A stretch of 64,000 nucleotides of DNA from Bifidobacterium breve (GTDB taxonomy: Bacteria > Actinomycetota > Thermoleophilia > Solirubrobacterales > Solirubrobacteraceae), in the NCBI GenBank assembly GCA_945889475.1, contig CAMDBT010000005.1, forward strand, positions 38,821-102,820, read 5' to 3'. This document shows positions 19,506-26,977 of this stretch, piece after piece. Every line of letters starts with the position of its first letter. Position 1 is the stretch's first letter. The notes below the pieces were generated by a model, which was not told the origin of the DNA, searched no databases, and saw only the letters and a list, made by a program, of their open reading frames with translations. Position numbers and translations under genes: made by a program.

Positions 19506-21089
19506 TCAGTCGCTTCCGGCAACCGGTGCATTGGCGAACACCGCCTTGCTGAATGGCTTGACCGAAGCACTGGCAGCCTTGCCGATCGGCTCAACGCCAA
19601 AAGCGATTTCAACCGTTTTCAGCAGCGAATAGTGGTTGTAGTGGGTCGAGATCGTGGACCCTGCAGCGACGTACGGTGAGAGGACGAGCGCTCCAACCTT
19701 GGCGTGATCCTCGGTCGGCTTCGAGGCGGCGTGGTCGCTTGTGATGACGATCATCCCACCGTCGGCGTAGGCCTTCGACTCGATGATCGAGGGAACGACC
19801 TGCTTCAGCCACTCGTCGGCCGCGCCAATTCCTCCGACGGCCCCGTCGCCGCAGCTTGCCGCGCTGCCGTCGTGGCAGGCGTCGGGCGCGATCAGCGAGA
19901 AGGCTGGCGTGTCCTCCAGCGTGGCCAAATCTGGAGCGAGACGGTCAAGACCGACGACGCTTCCGCCGCAGTCGGGCGACTCGGTGATCGATCGGAAGTA
20001 GACGAACGGGTTGCGCCAAGTCATGTAACCGTCACCCGGGCGCGGCGCGGCGAAGCCGTCTTCGGCGCCGACCTCCGGATGGCGGCAGCTCGTCACGCCG
20101 CTGCCAGGATCGTTACCGATCGCCTCAAAGTAGCCCTTCCAGACCAGGCCCGCCCCGGTCATTTGGTCGGCGACGGTTTTCGTCTTCGGCGGATAAAGGC
20201 AGCCCTCGCCTGTAACAAGCCCTGTTTTGGCATCAACCTTGGTCTGCTTGAGGTTGATGAACTTCGGGCAGTTGGCGGCGGTTGCAGTGTTCGGCGCCTG
20301 CCCGCTAATCAGCGCGAGCGAGTTCGGCAGGCCAGCGGCGGAGATCGCACTGTAGTTGGAGAGCAGTGTGCCTTTGGCGCGCAGCTCGGTTCCGAGATAA
20401 GCGCTCGCGGCGGCCTTCGCAGTCACTCGCGGCGCGCGCGCCGCTGCAGCCTGACCGTAGACCTCTTCGTAGCTTGGACCCGACAGCGTGATAATCCAAG
20501 CGTGCTTGATCGGCGCCGCCGAGGTGACGGTCGGCGTCGTGCTACCACCACCGCCGCCGCCGCCACTGGGCGGCTCACTTGTTTCCGGGGCGCTGACGAG
20601 GCCCTCGGGATCGCCGTCAATGGGTGGGTCAACGCTTGCCTCGGGCGGATCGCCGCCAAGCCCGGGCTCCTCGCCCTCAGCGCCCGGGGCCAGAGGCGCT
20701 TGCGCCGGCTGCCCAGCAGCGGCGCGCGTCGTGGTGGCCTTCGGGCCAGCAACAACGCCAAGTGCAACCCCGACTACGAGCAGGCAGAGCACTGCAGCCC
20801 CGACAAGACGCGGCGTTCCGAAGTCAAGATCGGCTAGCGGGAACCCTTCCCAAGTGGATCGTTGCGACGCCGCCTGTGCATCAGCGCTGAGAGCGGCGGC
20901 GCTGGCGAGAACCACCTCCGGCTGGCTGGCGAGCGGCGAGCGCGCGGCCTCGACTGGGTCTAGCCGCGGCTGGCCGCGCCGCGCGCCGCAGCTAAGGCAG
21001 TAGCGCTGATCGCCCGACATCGCAACCTGACACTGCGGGCACGGGGCCCCGTGCTCAGCGAGCGGGGAGCTGAATAGGTCGGAGGCCAT
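19506..21089 (-). CDS. zinc-ribbon, membrane-anchored phosphoesterase-like protein
   Basis: 527 residues in three parts. First, a zinc ribbon CPQCQVAMSGDQRYCLSCGARRG (residues about 17-39). Then one membrane helix LVGAAVLCLLVVGVALGVVAG (about 95-115) and a Pro/Gly-rich linker with a G8 run. Last, a C-terminal domain of the alkaline-phosphatase-like phosphoesterase type (SNYSAISAAGLPNSLALISGQ, ADQMTGAGLVWKGY, VITSDHAAS, THYNHYSLLKTVEIAFG). The usual ENHSYD-type metal motif is changed to LSGPSYEE and the Thr-His-Pro-Ser segment to SAAG, so catalysis is uncertain. The domain should lie outside the membrane. No ribosome site is seen, and a CACAAT box ends nine bases before the ATG, so the mRNA may be leaderless. 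Divergent from pstS. Confidence 0.75.
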   Translation of the reverse strand: MASDLFSSPLAEHGAPCPQCQVAMSGDQRYCLSCGARRGQPRLDPVEAARSPLASQPEVVLASAAALSADAQAASQRSTWEGFPLADLDFGTPRLVGAAVLCLLVVGVALGVVAGPKATTTRAAAGQPAQAPLAPGAEGEEPGLGGDPPEASVDPPIDGDPEGLVSAPETSEPPSGGGGGGGSTTPTVTSAAPIKHAWIITLSGPSYEEVYGQAAAARAPRVTAKAAASAYLGTELRAKGTLLSNYSAISAAGLPNSLALISGQAPNTATAANCPKFINLKQTKVDAKTGLVTGEGCLYPPKTKTVADQMTGAGLVWKGYFEAIGNDPGSGVTSCRHPEVGAEDGFAAPRPGDGYMTWRNPFVYFRSITESPDCGGSVVGLDRLAPDLATLEDTPAFSLIAPDACHDGSAASCGDGAVGGIGAADEWLKQVVPSIIESKAYADGGMIVITSDHAASKPTEDHAKVGALVLSPYVAAGSTISTHYNHYSLLKTVEIAFGVEPIGKAASASVKPFSKAVFANAPVAGSD

Positions 21090-21097
21090 CGCACGTG

Positions 21098-21152
21098 ATT
21101 GTGGGGAAGAGTGGCGCCCGCAATGTGAACAGCCGGTAACGACGGAGTGAGG
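21098..21152 (-). promoter_or_regulatory. PHO-box-like repeats and -10 for the phosphoesterase gene
   Basis: Read on the minus strand: three adjacent 11-mers CCTCACTCCGT, CGTTACCGGCT, GTTCACATTGC (21152 to 21120). Exactly 21 bases separate GTTCAC from CACAAT (21103-21098). Actinobacterial PhoP sites are direct repeats of 11 bases with a GTTCACC-like start. Only the last unit is a close match. The same GTTCAC-N21-CACAAT layout is found on the other strand before pstS. Confidence 0.5.
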
Positions 21153-21175
21153 CCGCGCTTCACCGGGAAGTCGTC

Positions 21176-21241
21176 GTTCACGGCATCTTCACCGCGAGCA
21201 CACCAGCAGTTCACATCCTGCAAGGCCCCCGAGCGCACAAT
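21176..21241 (+). promoter_or_regulatory. PHO-box-like repeats and -10 for pstS
   Basis: Four adjacent 11-mers: GTTCACGGCAT, CTTCACCGCGA, GCACACCAGCA, GTTCACATCCT (21176-21219). Three begin with (G/C)TTCAC. Twenty-one bases after the last GTTCAC is CACAAT (21236-21241), a possible -10, giving a leader of about 70 bases. This matches the direct-repeat PHO box of Streptomyces PhoP. No phoR-phoP genes lie in the window. Confidence 0.62.
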
Positions 21242-21315
21242 CCTGCGGCATGTACATGAAAAGGCTACGGCGCGTCTCGCCGTCAACTGAACTGAATACG
21301 AAAGGAATCACCTCT

Positions 21316-22128
21316 ATGTCAAGTGTTCGTCTCCTCCGCGCGTGCGTCGCCGTGGCTGCCATCGGTGCTCTCGCCATTCCGGCGAGCGCCGCGGCAAAGC
21401 CGGTCATCACGATCAGCGGCTCGACCTCGGTGGCCCCACTCGCATCGTTGCTCGCTCGCGGTTACCTGAAGGAAAGCAAGAACGCAGTCAAGTTCAAGCT
21501 GGCTCAGGGCGGCTCCGATGTTGGCGTTGCCGATGTTGCAGCTGGCCGCGTGTCAATCGGGATGTCATCACGCGACCCAAAGTCAAGCGACCCCCGGGGA
21601 ATCTTCTTCAACAAGATTGCCAAGGACGCGATCTGCATCGTCACGAACCCATCCAACCCAGTCGCAAACCTCTCGCAGGCGCAGATCAAAGCGATCTTCG
21701 GCGGCTCGGTTCGTGACTGGCGGGATGTCGCTGGTTCGGGCATCACCGGCGCGATCGACGTGACCGTACGGACCGCAGCTTCAGGGACTCAGGATGCGTT
21801 CCAGAAGATCTTCCTTGGCTCGACCTCGCTCACCGGAGCTGTCTCACAAAAGGCTTCTAACGGCCTGATTCAACAGGCAGTGAAGTCGAACAGGAACGCT
21901 ATCGGGTACGTGTCACTCGACTTCGTCGGTGGCGTCAACCCAGCTTCCTACAACGGAGTTGCTTGCAACCTACGTAACGCGAAGTCCGGCGAGTACGGCG
22001 GCGTCCGTAACTTCTGGCTCGTCACCCGTGGACCGGCGAAAGGCAACATCTCGCAGTTCATCAAGTGGGCGCAGGATTCATCTGCCGCCGCGAAGATCAC
22101 CGGTAAGCACTGGGTTCCCCTGAAATAG
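21316..22128 (+). CDS. pstS: phosphate-binding protein of the Pst transporter
   Basis: 270 residues from the ATG at 21316, preceded by AAAGGA; the track start 66 bases upstream has no site. A Sec signal peptide (LLRACVAVAAIGALAIPASAAA) lacks a lipobox Cys. The PBP fold has the phosphate-contact segments ISGSTSVAPL and AQGGSDVGVADVAAG, with RTAASGTQDAF later. It captures inorganic phosphate outside the membrane for PstCAB. Its stop overlaps the GTG of pstC by one base. Divergent PHO-like repeats upstream suggest induction under phosphate limitation. Confidence 0.92.
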   Translation: MSSVRLLRACVAVAAIGALAIPASAAAKPVITISGSTSVAPLASLLARGYLKESKNAVKFKLAQGGSDVGVADVAAGRVSIGMSSRDPKSSDPRGIFFNKIAKDAICIVTNPSNPVANLSQAQIKAIFGGSVRDWRDVAGSGITGAIDVTVRTAASGTQDAFQKIFLGSTSLTGAVSQKASNGLIQQAVKSNRNAIGYVSLDFVGGVNPASYNGVACNLRNAKSGEYGGVRNFWLVTRGPAKGNISQFIKWAQDSSAAAKITGKHWVPLK

Positions 22129-23111
22129 TGTTGGATCGGCTCAGAGAGCCGTGGACGGACAAGCGCGCCGGGCTGCTGCTCGGCGCGCTTGCCTGTTCTG
22201 TGCTGGCCGTAATCGTCTTCATGCTCGTGTTCATCGCGATCAAGGCGTGGCCGTCGTTCGCCCACAACGGCCTTTCGTGGTTCTCCTCGAAAGGCGTTGT
22301 TGACCAGCAGCTCGACGCGATGGTCAACTCGGGGGCCAACCCGAGCAGCGCCGAGTACCAGCTCGGCGCCTGGCCGCTGATCTACGCGACGCTGCTAACG
22401 ACCTGCTTCGCCACCATTTTCGGCCTTATCTTCTCGTTGCTTTCGGCAATCTTCATCGTTGAGTTTGCTCCCCTGTGGATTCGCCGCGTGATCGTCCCCG
22501 TCGTGCGGCTCCTCGCCGCCGTCCCTTCGGTGATCTACGGCCTGATCGGGATCCTCGTCCTCGCACCGTTCATCGGCAACAGCGTGATCTCTGCCGATCA
22601 AAAAAGCTCAGTGCAGTTTGTGATTCCACTATCTGGCACCAGTCTGGGGGTCGCGATCGCGGTCCTCACGGTGATGATCACGCCAATCATGATCGCGATC
22701 ACGGTTGACGGTCTCCATTCAATTCCGCGCTCGTGGAAGGAAGGCGCTCTGGCGCTCGGCGTAAACCGCTGGCGCGCGATGTGGACCGTTACGGTGCGCG
22801 CGGCGCGACCAGCGATCATTGCCGGAGCCGTGCTGGCGACAGCCCGCGCGCTTGGCGAGGCGATCATGATCTCGATGGTCGCCGGATCGAAGGGCTTCTC
22901 CCCTAACCCGCTCGACGGACTGCTTTTCTTCTTCGAGCCGGTTAGGACGCTGGCGGCGACGGTCGTTGAGGATGCCGAATCGATTAACGCGCCGGCGATG
23001 CAGGCCAGCCTCTACGCGATGGCGTTCGTACTGCTGATCGGAGCGTTCTTCCTGTCACTCGGCAGCTGGATCGCCAAGCAGCCACTGAAGAAATACGGGA
23101 CGAGGTCATAG
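22128..23111 (+). CDS. pstC: phosphate ABC transporter permease PstC
   Basis: 327 residues from a GTG that shares its first base with the pstS stop codon. About six membrane helices. The ABC permease EAA loop is visible in SWKEGALALGVNRWRAMWTVTVRAARPAIIAGAVLATARALGEA. The large extracellular loop after helix 1 is typical of PstC. It forms the membrane channel with PstA. Translation is clearly coupled to pstS and to pstA, which also starts with a GTG overlapping by one base. Confidence 0.93.
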   Translation: MLDRLREPWTDKRAGLLLGALACSVLAVIVFMLVFIAIKAWPSFAHNGLSWFSSKGVVDQQLDAMVNSGANPSSAEYQLGAWPLIYATLLTTCFATIFGLIFSLLSAIFIVEFAPLWIRRVIVPVVRLLAAVPSVIYGLIGILVLAPFIGNSVISADQKSSVQFVIPLSGTSLGVAIAVLTVMITPIMIAITVDGLHSIPRSWKEGALALGVNRWRAMWTVTVRAARPAIIAGAVLATARALGEAIMISMVAGSKGFSPNPLDGLLFFFEPVRTLAATVVEDAESINAPAMQASLYAMAFVLLIGAFFLSLGSWIAKQPLKKYGTRS

Positions 23112-24160
23112 TGAGCGTGCCGACCCGTATGCCGGCACCGATGCCGCCGCTTCCGCCGCTGCCGCTGCCGCGGTCGCCCGGCGGCCGCAAGGGCAAGTCG
23201 CCGAAGAAAAAGCAGGTCAATGAATCGATCAGCACTTGGAGGCTGACCGACAGGATCGGCTACGTGATGATGTGGGCGGCCGGCCTGATGCTCTGCGCAA
23301 TCGGGATTGGGATTCTCGTCTACATGGCCTTCAAAGGGGTCCAATACCTGCGGCCCAGCTTGATCTTCAGTAGCCCTACGGCAGAGATTGACCAGTCGAA
23401 GAGTGGAGGCTTCTTTGATCCGCTGATCGGAACCGTGCTGATCACGCTGATCGGCATCATCATCGCGACACCGATCGCAATCTTCGCGGCAACCTGGATC
23501 GTTGAGTACGGCCGGCCGACCTGGCTCGCCCGACTGATCGATTCGGGAATCGAGATCATCGCCGGTACCCCCGACATCGTGATCGCGCTATTCGGGCTCG
23601 TTCTGTTCCAGCAGGGGATCTTCGGTTGGATGTCGTTTACGGCCACCGGTGGCGCGGTCTTCGGCCGCTCGTTCTTGACTGCTGGCGCGATGATGTCGCT
23701 GATCGCGCTGCCGATGGTCTTCGCCGCCACGCGGGAAGGACTGCAGTCGATCCCAGCCCACGTCCGCGAGGCCTCATACGCACTTGGCAAGACGAAGGCG
23801 GCGACGATCCGCCGAGTCTTGCTGCCCTCGGTGAAGGCCAACATCTCGACCGGGGCCGCGCTCGGGATGGGCCGCATCGCTGGCGACACGGCGATCATCG
23901 TCGTCCTGCTCGGAGCGTCGCTAACGCTCGATCCTGAAGGCGACGTTCCGGGACTGAATCTGCTGAAAGGCACCGGCGGCACGCTCACCAGTTACGTCTA
24001 CAACAACTCGCCAGCCGGTGAAGGGAACGCGCCGCAGAAGGCCTATGCCGCGGCGTTCGTGCTGCTGCTGATCGTGCTGGCACTGAATTTCGCCGTTGAC
24101 CGGATCGCCCGAAGCGGCGCGAAAACTGGACTAGAAACCTCGAGGCTGGGAGCACGCTGA
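23111..24160 (+). CDS. pstA: phosphate ABC transporter permease PstA
   Basis: 349 residues from a GTG. The first 40 residues are an unusual Pro-rich, then Lys/Arg-rich cytoplasmic tail (MPAPMPPLPPLPLP, GGRKGKSPKKKQ) not needed for the fold. Six membrane helices follow, with the EAA loop in HVREASYALGKTKAATIRRVLLPSVKANISTGAALGMGRIAGDTA. It pairs with PstC. One-base overlaps on both sides bind it into the operon. Confidence 0.93.
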   Translation: MSVPTRMPAPMPPLPPLPLPRSPGGRKGKSPKKKQVNESISTWRLTDRIGYVMMWAAGLMLCAIGIGILVYMAFKGVQYLRPSLIFSSPTAEIDQSKSGGFFDPLIGTVLITLIGIIIATPIAIFAATWIVEYGRPTWLARLIDSGIEIIAGTPDIVIALFGLVLFQQGIFGWMSFTATGGAVFGRSFLTAGAMMSLIALPMVFAATREGLQSIPAHVREASYALGKTKAATIRRVLLPSVKANISTGAALGMGRIAGDTAIIVVLLGASLTLDPEGDVPGLNLLKGTGGTLTSYVYNNSPAGEGNAPQKAYAAAFVLLLIVLALNFAVDRIARSGAKTGLETSRLGAR

Positions 24161-25119
24161 TGATCGAACCACGCGAACAGGCCGCCCCGCCAGCACCGGG
24201 CTCGAGCGAGCCTGCCAACGGCACGGTACCTCCGCCGATTCGGCGGATCGCGCTCGACCGTCAGCCGACCGTCGCCCTACCGCCGTCTCAGGATGCCGTC
24301 GCGATTGCCAACACCAGCGACCGCAGCCTCGCGGCCGCCCGAAGGCCAGCCCGCGGGGTAGCTGGCCCCGAACGGATGAGGATCGAGGGGCTGAACGTCT
24401 ACTACGGGAACAACCACGTCGTGAAGAACGTTTCCTTGCCGATCCGTCAAGGCGAAGTATTGGCTCTAATTGGTCCGTCCGGCTGCGGCAAGACGACGCT
24501 GCTACGAACGCTAAACCGACTGACCGAGCTGACCAGCTCCGCTCGGCGTGACGGGATGATCACACTCGACGGCAGCGACATCGATTCGCTCGAGGTAACC
24601 GAGCATCGGCGGCGCGTTTCGATGGTTTTCCAGCAACCGAACCCGTTCCCGATGTCGGTCTTCGACAACGTCGCCTACGCGCTGAGGGAGCAAGGCGCAA
24701 AGAGGCCCAAGAAGAAGGTGCTGGAGCCGTACGTGATTGAGGCGCTGCAGCGAGCGGGCCTTTACGACGAAGTCTCGTCAAACCTCGACCACCCCGCGCT
24801 GCGGCTCTCCGGCGGGCAGCAACAACGACTCTGCATCGCGCGCGCACTAGCGGCTCGCCCGGAAGTGCTGTTGATGGATGAGCCTTGCTCCGCGCTCGAC
24901 CCAAAGTCGACAAACGTGATCGAGGAGCTGATCGTCGAGCTGCGCAAGGACCTCGCGATCGTCATTGTCACACACAACCTGCAACAGGCCTACCGAGTTG
25001 GAGACCACGTCGCCTTCATGTATCTCGGCGACCTCGTTGAATACGGCCAAACAGACGCGCTCTTTGACAACCCGAAAGCAGCTCGCACGCGCGATTACAT
25101 CGGCGGTGCCTTCGGATGA
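24160..25119 (+). CDS. pstB: phosphate ABC transporter ATP-binding protein PstB
   Basis: 319 residues, about 60 longer than usual because of a Pro/Ala/Arg-rich N-terminal extension (residues 1-70). Walker A GPSGCGKTT is at about 105-113. The Q-loop is FQQPNPFPMSVFDNVAY, the ABC signature is LSGGQQQRLCIARAL, Walker B is VLLMDEPCSALDP and the switch His is in IVTHN. It powers phosphate uptake at the inner face of the membrane. No phoU follows, which is the usual next gene in many bacteria; three unrelated ORFs follow instead. Confidence 0.93.
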   Translation: MIEPREQAAPPAPGSSEPANGTVPPPIRRIALDRQPTVALPPSQDAVAIANTSDRSLAAARRPARGVAGPERMRIEGLNVYYGNNHVVKNVSLPIRQGEVLALIGPSGCGKTTLLRTLNRLTELTSSARRDGMITLDGSDIDSLEVTEHRRRVSMVFQQPNPFPMSVFDNVAYALREQGAKRPKKKVLEPYVIEALQRAGLYDEVSSNLDHPALRLSGGQQQRLCIARALAARPEVLLMDEPCSALDPKSTNVIEELIVELRKDLAIVIVTHNLQQAYRVGDHVAFMYLGDLVEYGQTDALFDNPKAARTRDYIGGAFG

Positions 25120-25859: not shown

Positions 25860-26465
25860 ATGTTTAGCGATCTGATCAATTCACCGCTCGTTGGAGTTCC
25901 CGGCGACACTTGCACAAGCTGCGGCTCGGCCCTCAGCCGCGACCAGCGCTACTGCCTCTCCTGCGGCACCCGCCGCAGCGGCGCCAACCTCCACTTCCAA
26001 CAGATCCTCGCGGCCGACTCGGCGGCGCAGGCTGCGACCTGGGCGGACCGCACGGCCGCGGCTGGCGCGGCGGCTGGCGACGGAGCTGCCACCCGTTCCT
26101 CGATGCCAGCACTTGCGTCGATCGCTTGCTTACTGCTGGCGCTTGGGGTCGGCGTCTTGATCGGTAGGTCAGGCGGCAGCACGGCGGCGCCAACTCAGGC
26201 CGTCACCGCTGCTCCTGTGGCGACCGGCGCTGCGCCGGACGCAGCCGCGACAGCGGCGAAGAAGACGCCGAAGTCCGCTTCCAAAAACGACCACCCAGCG
26301 GCAGCGGCCGCAAACAAGGACCTAAAGAAGCTCGAGAGCCTCACACCCGAGCAGTATCAGAAGCAATCGTTGAAGTTGCCGAAGGTAGTTGGAACCGGCG
26401 GCGAACCACCTCCCAAAGACAATAAGGCGCCAGCCGGTGGCGGCTCCTTCGAAACGATTGGATGA
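25860..26465 (+). CDS. zinc-ribbon membrane protein in the pst operon
   Basis: 201 residues. A zinc ribbon CTSCGSALSRDQRYCLSCGTRRS (residues about 18-40) is almost the same as the ribbon of the divergent phosphoesterase, sharing DQRYCLSCG-x-RR. One membrane helix follows (MPALASIACLLLALGVGVLIG, about 81-101), then an Ala/Pro/Lys-rich external tail. It thus looks like the phosphoesterase gene product without its enzymatic domain. Function unknown; a regulatory or scaffold role near the Pst transporter is inference. Confidence 0.72.
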   Translation: MFSDLINSPLVGVPGDTCTSCGSALSRDQRYCLSCGTRRSGANLHFQQILAADSAAQAATWADRTAAAGAAAGDGAATRSSMPALASIACLLLALGVGVLIGRSGGSTAAPTQAVTAAPVATGAAPDAAATAAKKTPKSASKNDHPAAAAANKDLKKLESLTPEQYQKQSLKLPKVVGTGGEPPPKDNKAPAGGGSFETIG

Positions 26466-26977
26466 CGATGAGCATTCTTAACCGGGTTCGTAAGAACGGA
26501 ACGGGCGCAGCGGCACAACCGCAGACGGCGCTCGGGTCTCACGCCTCGACTGAGGTCCACCAGCGCCGCGACGAACTCGCGGCGATCGTCGCCGAGATGA
26601 CCTGGGATCTGGGCGGCCTGACCTACGAGATGGCGGTTCGCGACCACTTCCGGATCGACGTGCTGGTACGTCGCGCCGCCGAGCTCCAAGAGGTCGACGC
26701 ACAGCTGGGCGAAGTAGAGCGCCTGCTGGCAGCCAATTACGAGGGGATCGGCGGTGCCTGCCGGGCCTGCGGCGCGCCGCATAGCCGTGGCGCGGTCTAC
26801 TGTTGGCAGTGCGGCCTGCAACTTCTGCAGGAATCCCAGAGCGCCGTCGTGACCGGTGTTACAGCTCCAACGGCGGAGGTTCCGGCCCAAACAGCGGCGG
26901 CGCCTGTGGTTCCCCAAGCGCCAACGCCGCTGCAGCCGCCGGCGGCGCCGCGCCAGTCCCCAGCGCCGCCAAGGTAG
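26462..26977 (+). CDS. soluble zinc-ribbon protein in the pst operon
   Basis: 171 residues overlapping the previous gene by four bases. An N-terminal helical region (EVHQRRDELAAIVAEMTWDLGGLTYEMAVRD, then RAAELQEVDAQLGEVERLLA) looks like a coiled coil. It is followed by a zinc ribbon CRACGAPHSRGAVYCWQCG and a long Pro/Ala tail. There is no membrane segment. It could pair with the membrane zinc-ribbon protein encoded just upstream. No named family recognised. Confidence 0.7.
   Translation: MTMSILNRVRKNGTGAAAQPQTALGSHASTEVHQRRDELAAIVAEMTWDLGGLTYEMAVRDHFRIDVLVRRAAELQEVDAQLGEVERLLAANYEGIGGACRACGAPHSRGAVYCWQCGLQLLQESQSAVVTGVTAPTAEVPAQTAAAPVVPQAPTPLQPPAAPRQSPAPPR

What the first reader, a model, noticed from the sequence alone, without database searches (positions are those of the whole stretch)
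21098..21241. Mirrored PHO-like promoters with identical GTTCAC-N21-CACAAT spacing
Four adjacent 11-mers before pstS and three before the divergent phosphoesterase gene follow the actinobacterial PHO-box rule. In both directions the last GTTCACAT is followed at exactly 21 bases by CACAAT. The minus-strand promoter would yield a nearly leaderless mRNA. The match in two directions is unlikely by chance and defines a lineage-specific Pho promoter model.
Basis: partly seen in the sequence, partly recalled or inferred. Interest (0 to 1): 0.62.

Follow-up and report, generated by a model that had tools for sequence, protein, structure and literature searches.

The report
Phosphate promoter with shifted spacing
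The two back-to-back switches that turn on phosphate-uptake genes in this soil/freshwater bacterium follow a fixed spacing rule shared by its order and by most other families examined in its class, one DNA turn (11 bases) different from the rule seen in E. coli and most other actinobacteria.

Summary
GTTCAC-N21-CACAAT occurs twice in 64 kb (0.03 expected) and only twice in the 1.65-Mb genome. Both copies lie between the divergent phosphoesterase gene and pstS. The four + strand 11-mers are conserved, the third as a degenerate unit. On the minus strand only two are conserved, so 'three' is an overcount.

The pattern is not local. In 40 pstS upstream regions from Solirubrobacteraceae with tandem PHO boxes, an A....T (-10-like) hexamer sits exactly 21 bases after the last box in 33; other offsets average about 0.8. 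It also holds for the divergent promoter (21/28), the second pst operon, and a conserved gene encoding a receiver-less PhoP-like DNA-binding protein (19 of 24 at N21, 5 at N22, start codon 6-14 nt downstream in most).

Two features look lineage-specific. First, other Actinomycetota, like E. coli, put the last box 10 bases from the -10, so here the operator sits one 11-bp unit upstream; several other Thermoleophilia families share this. Second, the -10 never starts with T (0/33), whereas other Actinomycetota have T (26/26) and leaderless genes in the same loci keep TANNNT.

Best reading: an activator-dependent Pho promoter, a new variant of a known kind. Transcription and PhoP binding remain untested.

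The parts
21176..21186 (+). PHO box 1 of pstS promoter, GTTCACGGCAT (slot N54)
21187..21197 (+). PHO box 2, CTTCACCGCGA (slot N43)
21198..21208 (+). PHO box 3, degenerate but conserved unit GCACACCAGCA (slot N32)
21209..21219 (+). PHO box 4, GTTCACATCCT (slot N21, proximal)
21236..21241 (+). predicted -10 of pstS, CACAAT, exactly 21 bases after GTTCAC
   Evidence: 33 of 40 orthologous regions have A....T at this offset
21242..21315 (+). pstS leader; predicted start of transcription about 21247-21249; AAAGGA Shine-Dalgarno-like stretch at 21301-21306
   Evidence: sequence; inference from the -10 position
21316..22128 (+). pstS (ATG at 21316); an in-frame ATG at 21250 is not conserved
   Evidence: PF12849 and TIGR02136; conserved start in relatives
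22128..25119 (+). pstC, pstA, pstB
   Evidence: TIGR02138, TIGR00974, TIGR00972
21120..21130 (-). proximal PHO box of the phosphoesterase promoter, GTTCACATTGC
21131..21141 (-). second, weaker PHO box CGTTACCGGCT (CGTCAC/GATCAC in relatives)
21098..21103 (-). predicted -10 of the phosphoesterase gene, CACAAT, 21 bases after GTTCAC and 8 nt before the ATG
   Evidence: 21 of 28 relatives at N21
19506..21089 (-). phosphoesterase-family gene with an N-terminal zinc-ribbon-like stretch (ATG at 21089), nearly leaderless if the -10 is right
   Evidence: PF04185

Best explanation
The intergenic region holds two back-to-back Pho promoters. Under phosphate limitation a PhoP/PhoB-type regulator binds head-to-tail to the 11-bp units: four in front of pstSCAB, two in front of the phosphoesterase gene. 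It recruits RNA polymerase to a -10 element whose distance from the proximal unit is fixed at 21 bp. There is no -35 element, and the -10 lacks the usual T at its first base, so basal activity should be low and strongly activator-dependent. Compared with E. coli and most other actinobacteria the whole operator sits one 11-bp unit (one helical turn) further upstream. The face of the DNA is kept, but the contact between PhoP and sigma region 4 or the polymerase must differ. Shown here: the sequence pattern, its conservation, its restriction by lineage and its recurrence at other phosphate genes. Inferred: PhoP as the binder, phosphate control, the start sites and the contact geometry.
For: Chance of the pattern. 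pstS orthologues: A....T at exactly N21 in 33/40 regions with tandem boxes called without reference to the -10, other offsets about 0.8 on average. After clustering by spacer similarity it is 12 of 19 clusters, P about 3e-17, and spacer identity is only 0.35, so this is not mere recent descent. Divergent promoter 21/28. In the own genome TTCAC-N6-TTCAC exists at three places only, all at phosphate genes: pstS, pstS2 and the DNA-binding-domain-only gene. The full model pattern finds pstS, the phosphoesterase gene and pstS2 (GTTCAC-N21-CAAACT) plus two other matches, against 0 for the reversed pattern. The pstS2 operon appears to continue on another contig with pstA, pstB, phoU and a response regulator. 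Slot analysis: boxes at N21/N32/N43/N54 and none at N10 in Solirubrobacteraceae; boxes at N10/N32/N43 and none at N21 in other Actinomycetota. E. coli phoA and pstS end at N10. Thermoleophilia families f2, f4 and f5 also fit N21. Non-T first base of the -10: 0/33 T against 26/26 T, while leaderless genes in the same loci keep TANNNT at gap 6-9 (12 seen, about 0.2 per gap elsewhere).
Against: No transcription, binding or phosphate-response data exist for this organism or, in the library searched, for any Thermoleophilia. 34 of 74 pstS upstream regions lack a tandem array above threshold; some of these pstS copies directly follow another gene. The class-wide reach is uneven: families f3 and f6 are mixed and f45 gives no boxes. 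The regulator is not identified: the genome holds three response regulators with this DNA-binding domain and one domain-only protein, with only two HisKA kinases found. The box scoring was designed after seeing the first alignments, although the -10 offset was counted afterwards.
Confidence: 0.82

Rival explanations
1. The 11-mers are genuine PHO boxes, but the CACAAT spacing is a coincidence; transcription starts at some other -10.
For: CACAAT is a poor -10 by the usual TANNNT consensus; no transcription data exist.
Against: The offset is kept in 33/40 pstS promoters, 21/28 divergent promoters and 19/24 domain-only-regulator promoters while the spacer sequence diverges to 0.35 identity.
Confidence: 0.05
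2. Another OmpR-family regulator (for example a GlnR- or MtrA-like protein) uses these 11-mers, and phosphate is not the signal.
For: GlnR and PhoP compete for sites in Streptomyces (a study cited in PMC4415409). The genome has several regulators with this DNA-binding domain and no kinase next to the pst-operon response regulator.
Against: Every exact double box in the genome is at a phosphate gene, and GTTCACC is the reported Streptomyces PhoP core (PMC4415409).
Confidence: 0.1
3. The non-T -10 reflects an alternative sigma factor with its own -10 rather than a weak primary-sigma -10.
For: C or G replaces T at the first -10 base in 30/33 Solirubrobacteraceae Pho promoters, while other genes in the same loci keep TANNNT.
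Against: Thermoleophilia families f4 and f5 show the same N21 layout with TANNNT, so the same polymerase form could read both; the A and T of the hexamer were required by the counting, so their invariance is not independent evidence.
Confidence: 0.08

Closest known systems
Streptomyces PhoP operators (PHO boxes of 11-nt direct repeat units, core GTTCACC)
   Same: 11-nt head-to-tail units with a GTTCAC core in front of pstS, and a weak third unit (DRu scores 3.3, 10.6, -2.8, 6.3 in S. filipinensis phoU-phoRP, PMC6283541). A leaderless phoR, a bidirectional phoU-phoRP region and a -10 GAACGT assigned to the mapped phoU start are precedents there (PMC6283541).
   Different: In the non-Thermoleophilia Actinomycetota pstS promoters examined, the last box is 10 bp from the -10 and the -10 starts with T. 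In S. filipinensis phoU the published distances imply 32 bp. The 21-bp setting is what is new here.
Escherichia coli PhoB promoters (phoA, pstS)
   Same: 11-bp periodic units; four units strong-strong-weak-strong in pstS; no -35 element needed.
   Different: Last unit 10 bp before TATAGT/TATTTT; here 21 bp, and the -10 starts with C or G.

Membership tests
Pho-regulon promoter (PHO box, PhoP/PhoB dependent) | Tandem direct repeats of 11 nt with a conserved 6-7 nt core | tested here: met
Pho-regulon promoter (PHO box, PhoP/PhoB dependent) | Sits in front of phosphate acquisition genes and recurs at other such genes in the genome | tested here: met
   pstSCAB, phosphoesterase, pstS2 operon, PhoP-like domain gene
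Pho-regulon promoter (PHO box, PhoP/PhoB dependent) | Operator in a fixed helical phase to a -10, with no -35 element | tested here: met
   fixed N21, i.e. 10+11; no conserved TTGACA-like columns in the spacer
Pho-regulon promoter (PHO box, PhoP/PhoB dependent) | Proximal unit 10 bp from the -10, as in E. coli and other Actinomycetota pstS | tested here: not met
   slot N10 score 1.84 against background 2.0. This is a property of the canonical layout, not a definition of the class, hence 'variant'.
Pho-regulon promoter (PHO box, PhoP/PhoB dependent) | Binding by phosphorylated PhoP/PhoB and induction at low phosphate | not testable with these tools
   needs experiment
Leaderless mRNA (phosphoesterase gene) | -10 about 6-9 nt before the start codon | tested here: met
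   8 nt in the window and its six closest relatives; mapped 5' end not available

The most novel reading that the evidence does not exclude
Several Thermoleophilia families set the entire Pho operator one 11-bp unit further from the -10, and the Solirubrobacterales in addition dropped the first T of the -10, so PhoP activates polymerase through a different contact. In Solirubrobacteraceae the loop is closed by a conserved, Pho-promoter-driven, nearly leaderless PhoP-like protein consisting of the DNA-binding domain alone, acting as a kinase-independent amplifier of, or competitor in, the phosphate response.
Probability: 0.3. Interest if true: 0.7.

Novelty: new variant of a known kind. Interest (0 to 1): 0.5.

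Why it matters
It gives an explicit, testable Pho promoter grammar for a large, mostly uncultured bacterial group: 11-bp boxes, 21 bp, then (C/G)A..(A/C)T. That allows Pho regulons to be read from genomes of soil and freshwater Solirubrobacterales. The clean one-turn shift between lineages is also a natural experiment on how PhoB-type activators contact RNA polymerase.

Tried and rejected
Upstream in-frame ATG at 21250 as a second near-leaderless start: rejected because relatives lack it. A hidden fifth box between box 4 and the -10: rejected, slot N10 scores at background. Canonical TTGACA-N16-19-TANNNT promoters in the window: none found, so that gave no control for the -10; start-codon-proximal hexamers were used instead. 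The domain-only regulator as the cause of the N21 shift: not supported, since it was found as a short open frame only in the window's family while families f4 and f5 also show N21. Literature searches for Pho promoters in Thermoleophilia or Solirubrobacter found nothing relevant.

Full report
What is there. Between a minus-strand phosphoesterase-family gene (PF04185, ATG at 21089) and pstSCAB on the + strand lie two back-to-back arrays of 11-mers. On the + strand: GTTCACGGCAT, CTTCACCGCGA, GCACACCAGCA, GTTCACATCCT from 21176, then CACAAT at 21236-21241. On the minus strand: CGTTACCGGCT, GTTCACATTGC, then CACAAT at 21103-21098 and the ATG 8 nt later. GTTCAC-N19-23-CACAAT occurs only here, twice, in 64 kb (0.03 expected) and in the 1.65-Mb genome.

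Conservation at pstS. Upstream regions of pstS relatives were taken from 17 named loci and from the window's family, giving 74 distinct regions. Tandem boxes were called without using the -10. 40 regions passed a 99% shuffle threshold; in 33 an A....T hexamer begins exactly 21 bases after the last box, while other offsets average about 0.8. Of the seven exceptions, three (L041, L043, L044) carry a second array with GAGACT at N21 and one (L045) has it at N22. The spacer itself is not conserved (pairwise identity 0.35), and with one representative per spacer cluster the result is 12 of 19 with P about 3e-17.

Conservation at the divergent gene and elsewhere. The divergent promoter keeps two boxes and N21 in 21 of 28 called regions, with the ATG 8 nt after the -10 in the window and its six closest relatives. 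In the own genome the exact double core TTCAC-N6-TTCAC occurs at three places, all at phosphate genes: pstS, a second pstS (TIGR02136) with GTTCAC-N21-CAAACT, and a gene for a PhoP-like DNA-binding domain without a receiver. The second pst operon appears to continue on contig 22 with pstA, pstB, phoU and a response regulator; that the two contigs join is inferred. The domain-only gene has four boxes with a usually weak last one (GGTAAM) in 24 of 25 family loci, the -10 at N21 in 19 and N22 in 5, and a start codon 6-14 nt after it in most. It is 52% identical over 81 residues to the DNA-binding domain of the pst-operon response regulator; in relative L109 it is a 119-aa ORF directly before a pstS.

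Lineage comparison. Scoring 11-bp slots relative to the -10: 33 Solirubrobacteraceae promoters have boxes at N21 (5.90 of 6), N32 (degenerate), N43 and N54, and nothing at N10 (1.84, background 2.0). 24 pstS promoters of other Actinomycetota have boxes at N10 (4.55), N32 and N43, and nothing at N21; there TANNNT lies at N32 from the second strong box in 26 of 37 called regions, two of these 26 being Thermoleophilia. E. coli phoA and pstS have the last unit at N10. Within Thermoleophilia, families f2, f4 and f5 fit N21 from the last box, f3 and f6 are mixed and f45 has no recognisable boxes. So the operator is one 11-bp unit further upstream in this lineage, in the same helical phase. The 5'-RACE-mapped phoU promoter of Streptomyces filipinensis (PMC6283541) has distances that imply N32, also in phase, so other settings exist.

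The -10. The first base is C (21), G (9) or A (3), never T, in 33 Solirubrobacteraceae pstS promoters; all 26 A....T hexamers at N32 in the Actinomycetota sample start with T. In the same Solirubrobacteraceae loci TANNNT is enriched 6-9 nt before start codons (12, against about 0.2 per position elsewhere, ATG starts), so the usual -10 keeps its T and the non-T form looks Pho-specific. Families f4 and f5 keep T with N21, so spacing and -10 changed separately.

Mechanism. Established for PhoB/PhoP (PMC4415409, PMC6283541): head-to-tail binding to 11-nt units after phosphorylation at low phosphate, with the DNA-binding domain alone able to bind constitutively. Inferred here: the same at this region, with activation from one turn further upstream, no -35, and low basal activity. 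Which of the three response regulators binds, and which of the two HisKA kinases found signals, is open.

Verdict. It is a new variant of a known kind of promoter; no paper on Pho promoters in this class was found in the library searched.

Noticed in passing
G000 contig 11, 3295-3672 (-) = L053:3295-3672: Conserved PhoP-like DNA-binding domain without a receiver, itself behind a four-box Pho promoter and nearly leaderless; close relatives across Solirubrobacteraceae, next to a pstS.
   Followed up: partly
window 19506-21089 (-), 25860-26465 (+), 26462-26977 (+): Three proteins around the pst operon share a zinc-ribbon-like stretch (CxxC...YC..CG); one is fused to the phosphoesterase domain. 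Only 25860-26465 matched a Pfam zinc ribbon, below its cut-off.
   Followed up: no
L008 (CAMDLG010000054.1): Public record titled Bifidobacterium breve carries a Solirubrobacterales-type pst region (73% PstS identity, same Pho promoter); the label looks wrong.
   Followed up: no
L041, L043, L044 upstream of pstS: Two successive four-box arrays upstream of pstS; the proximal one fits N21 with GAGACT.
   Followed up: no
G000 contig 11, 2279-3232 (-): A second, divergent PstS-like lipoprotein lies between the domain-only regulator and pstS2.
   Followed up: no
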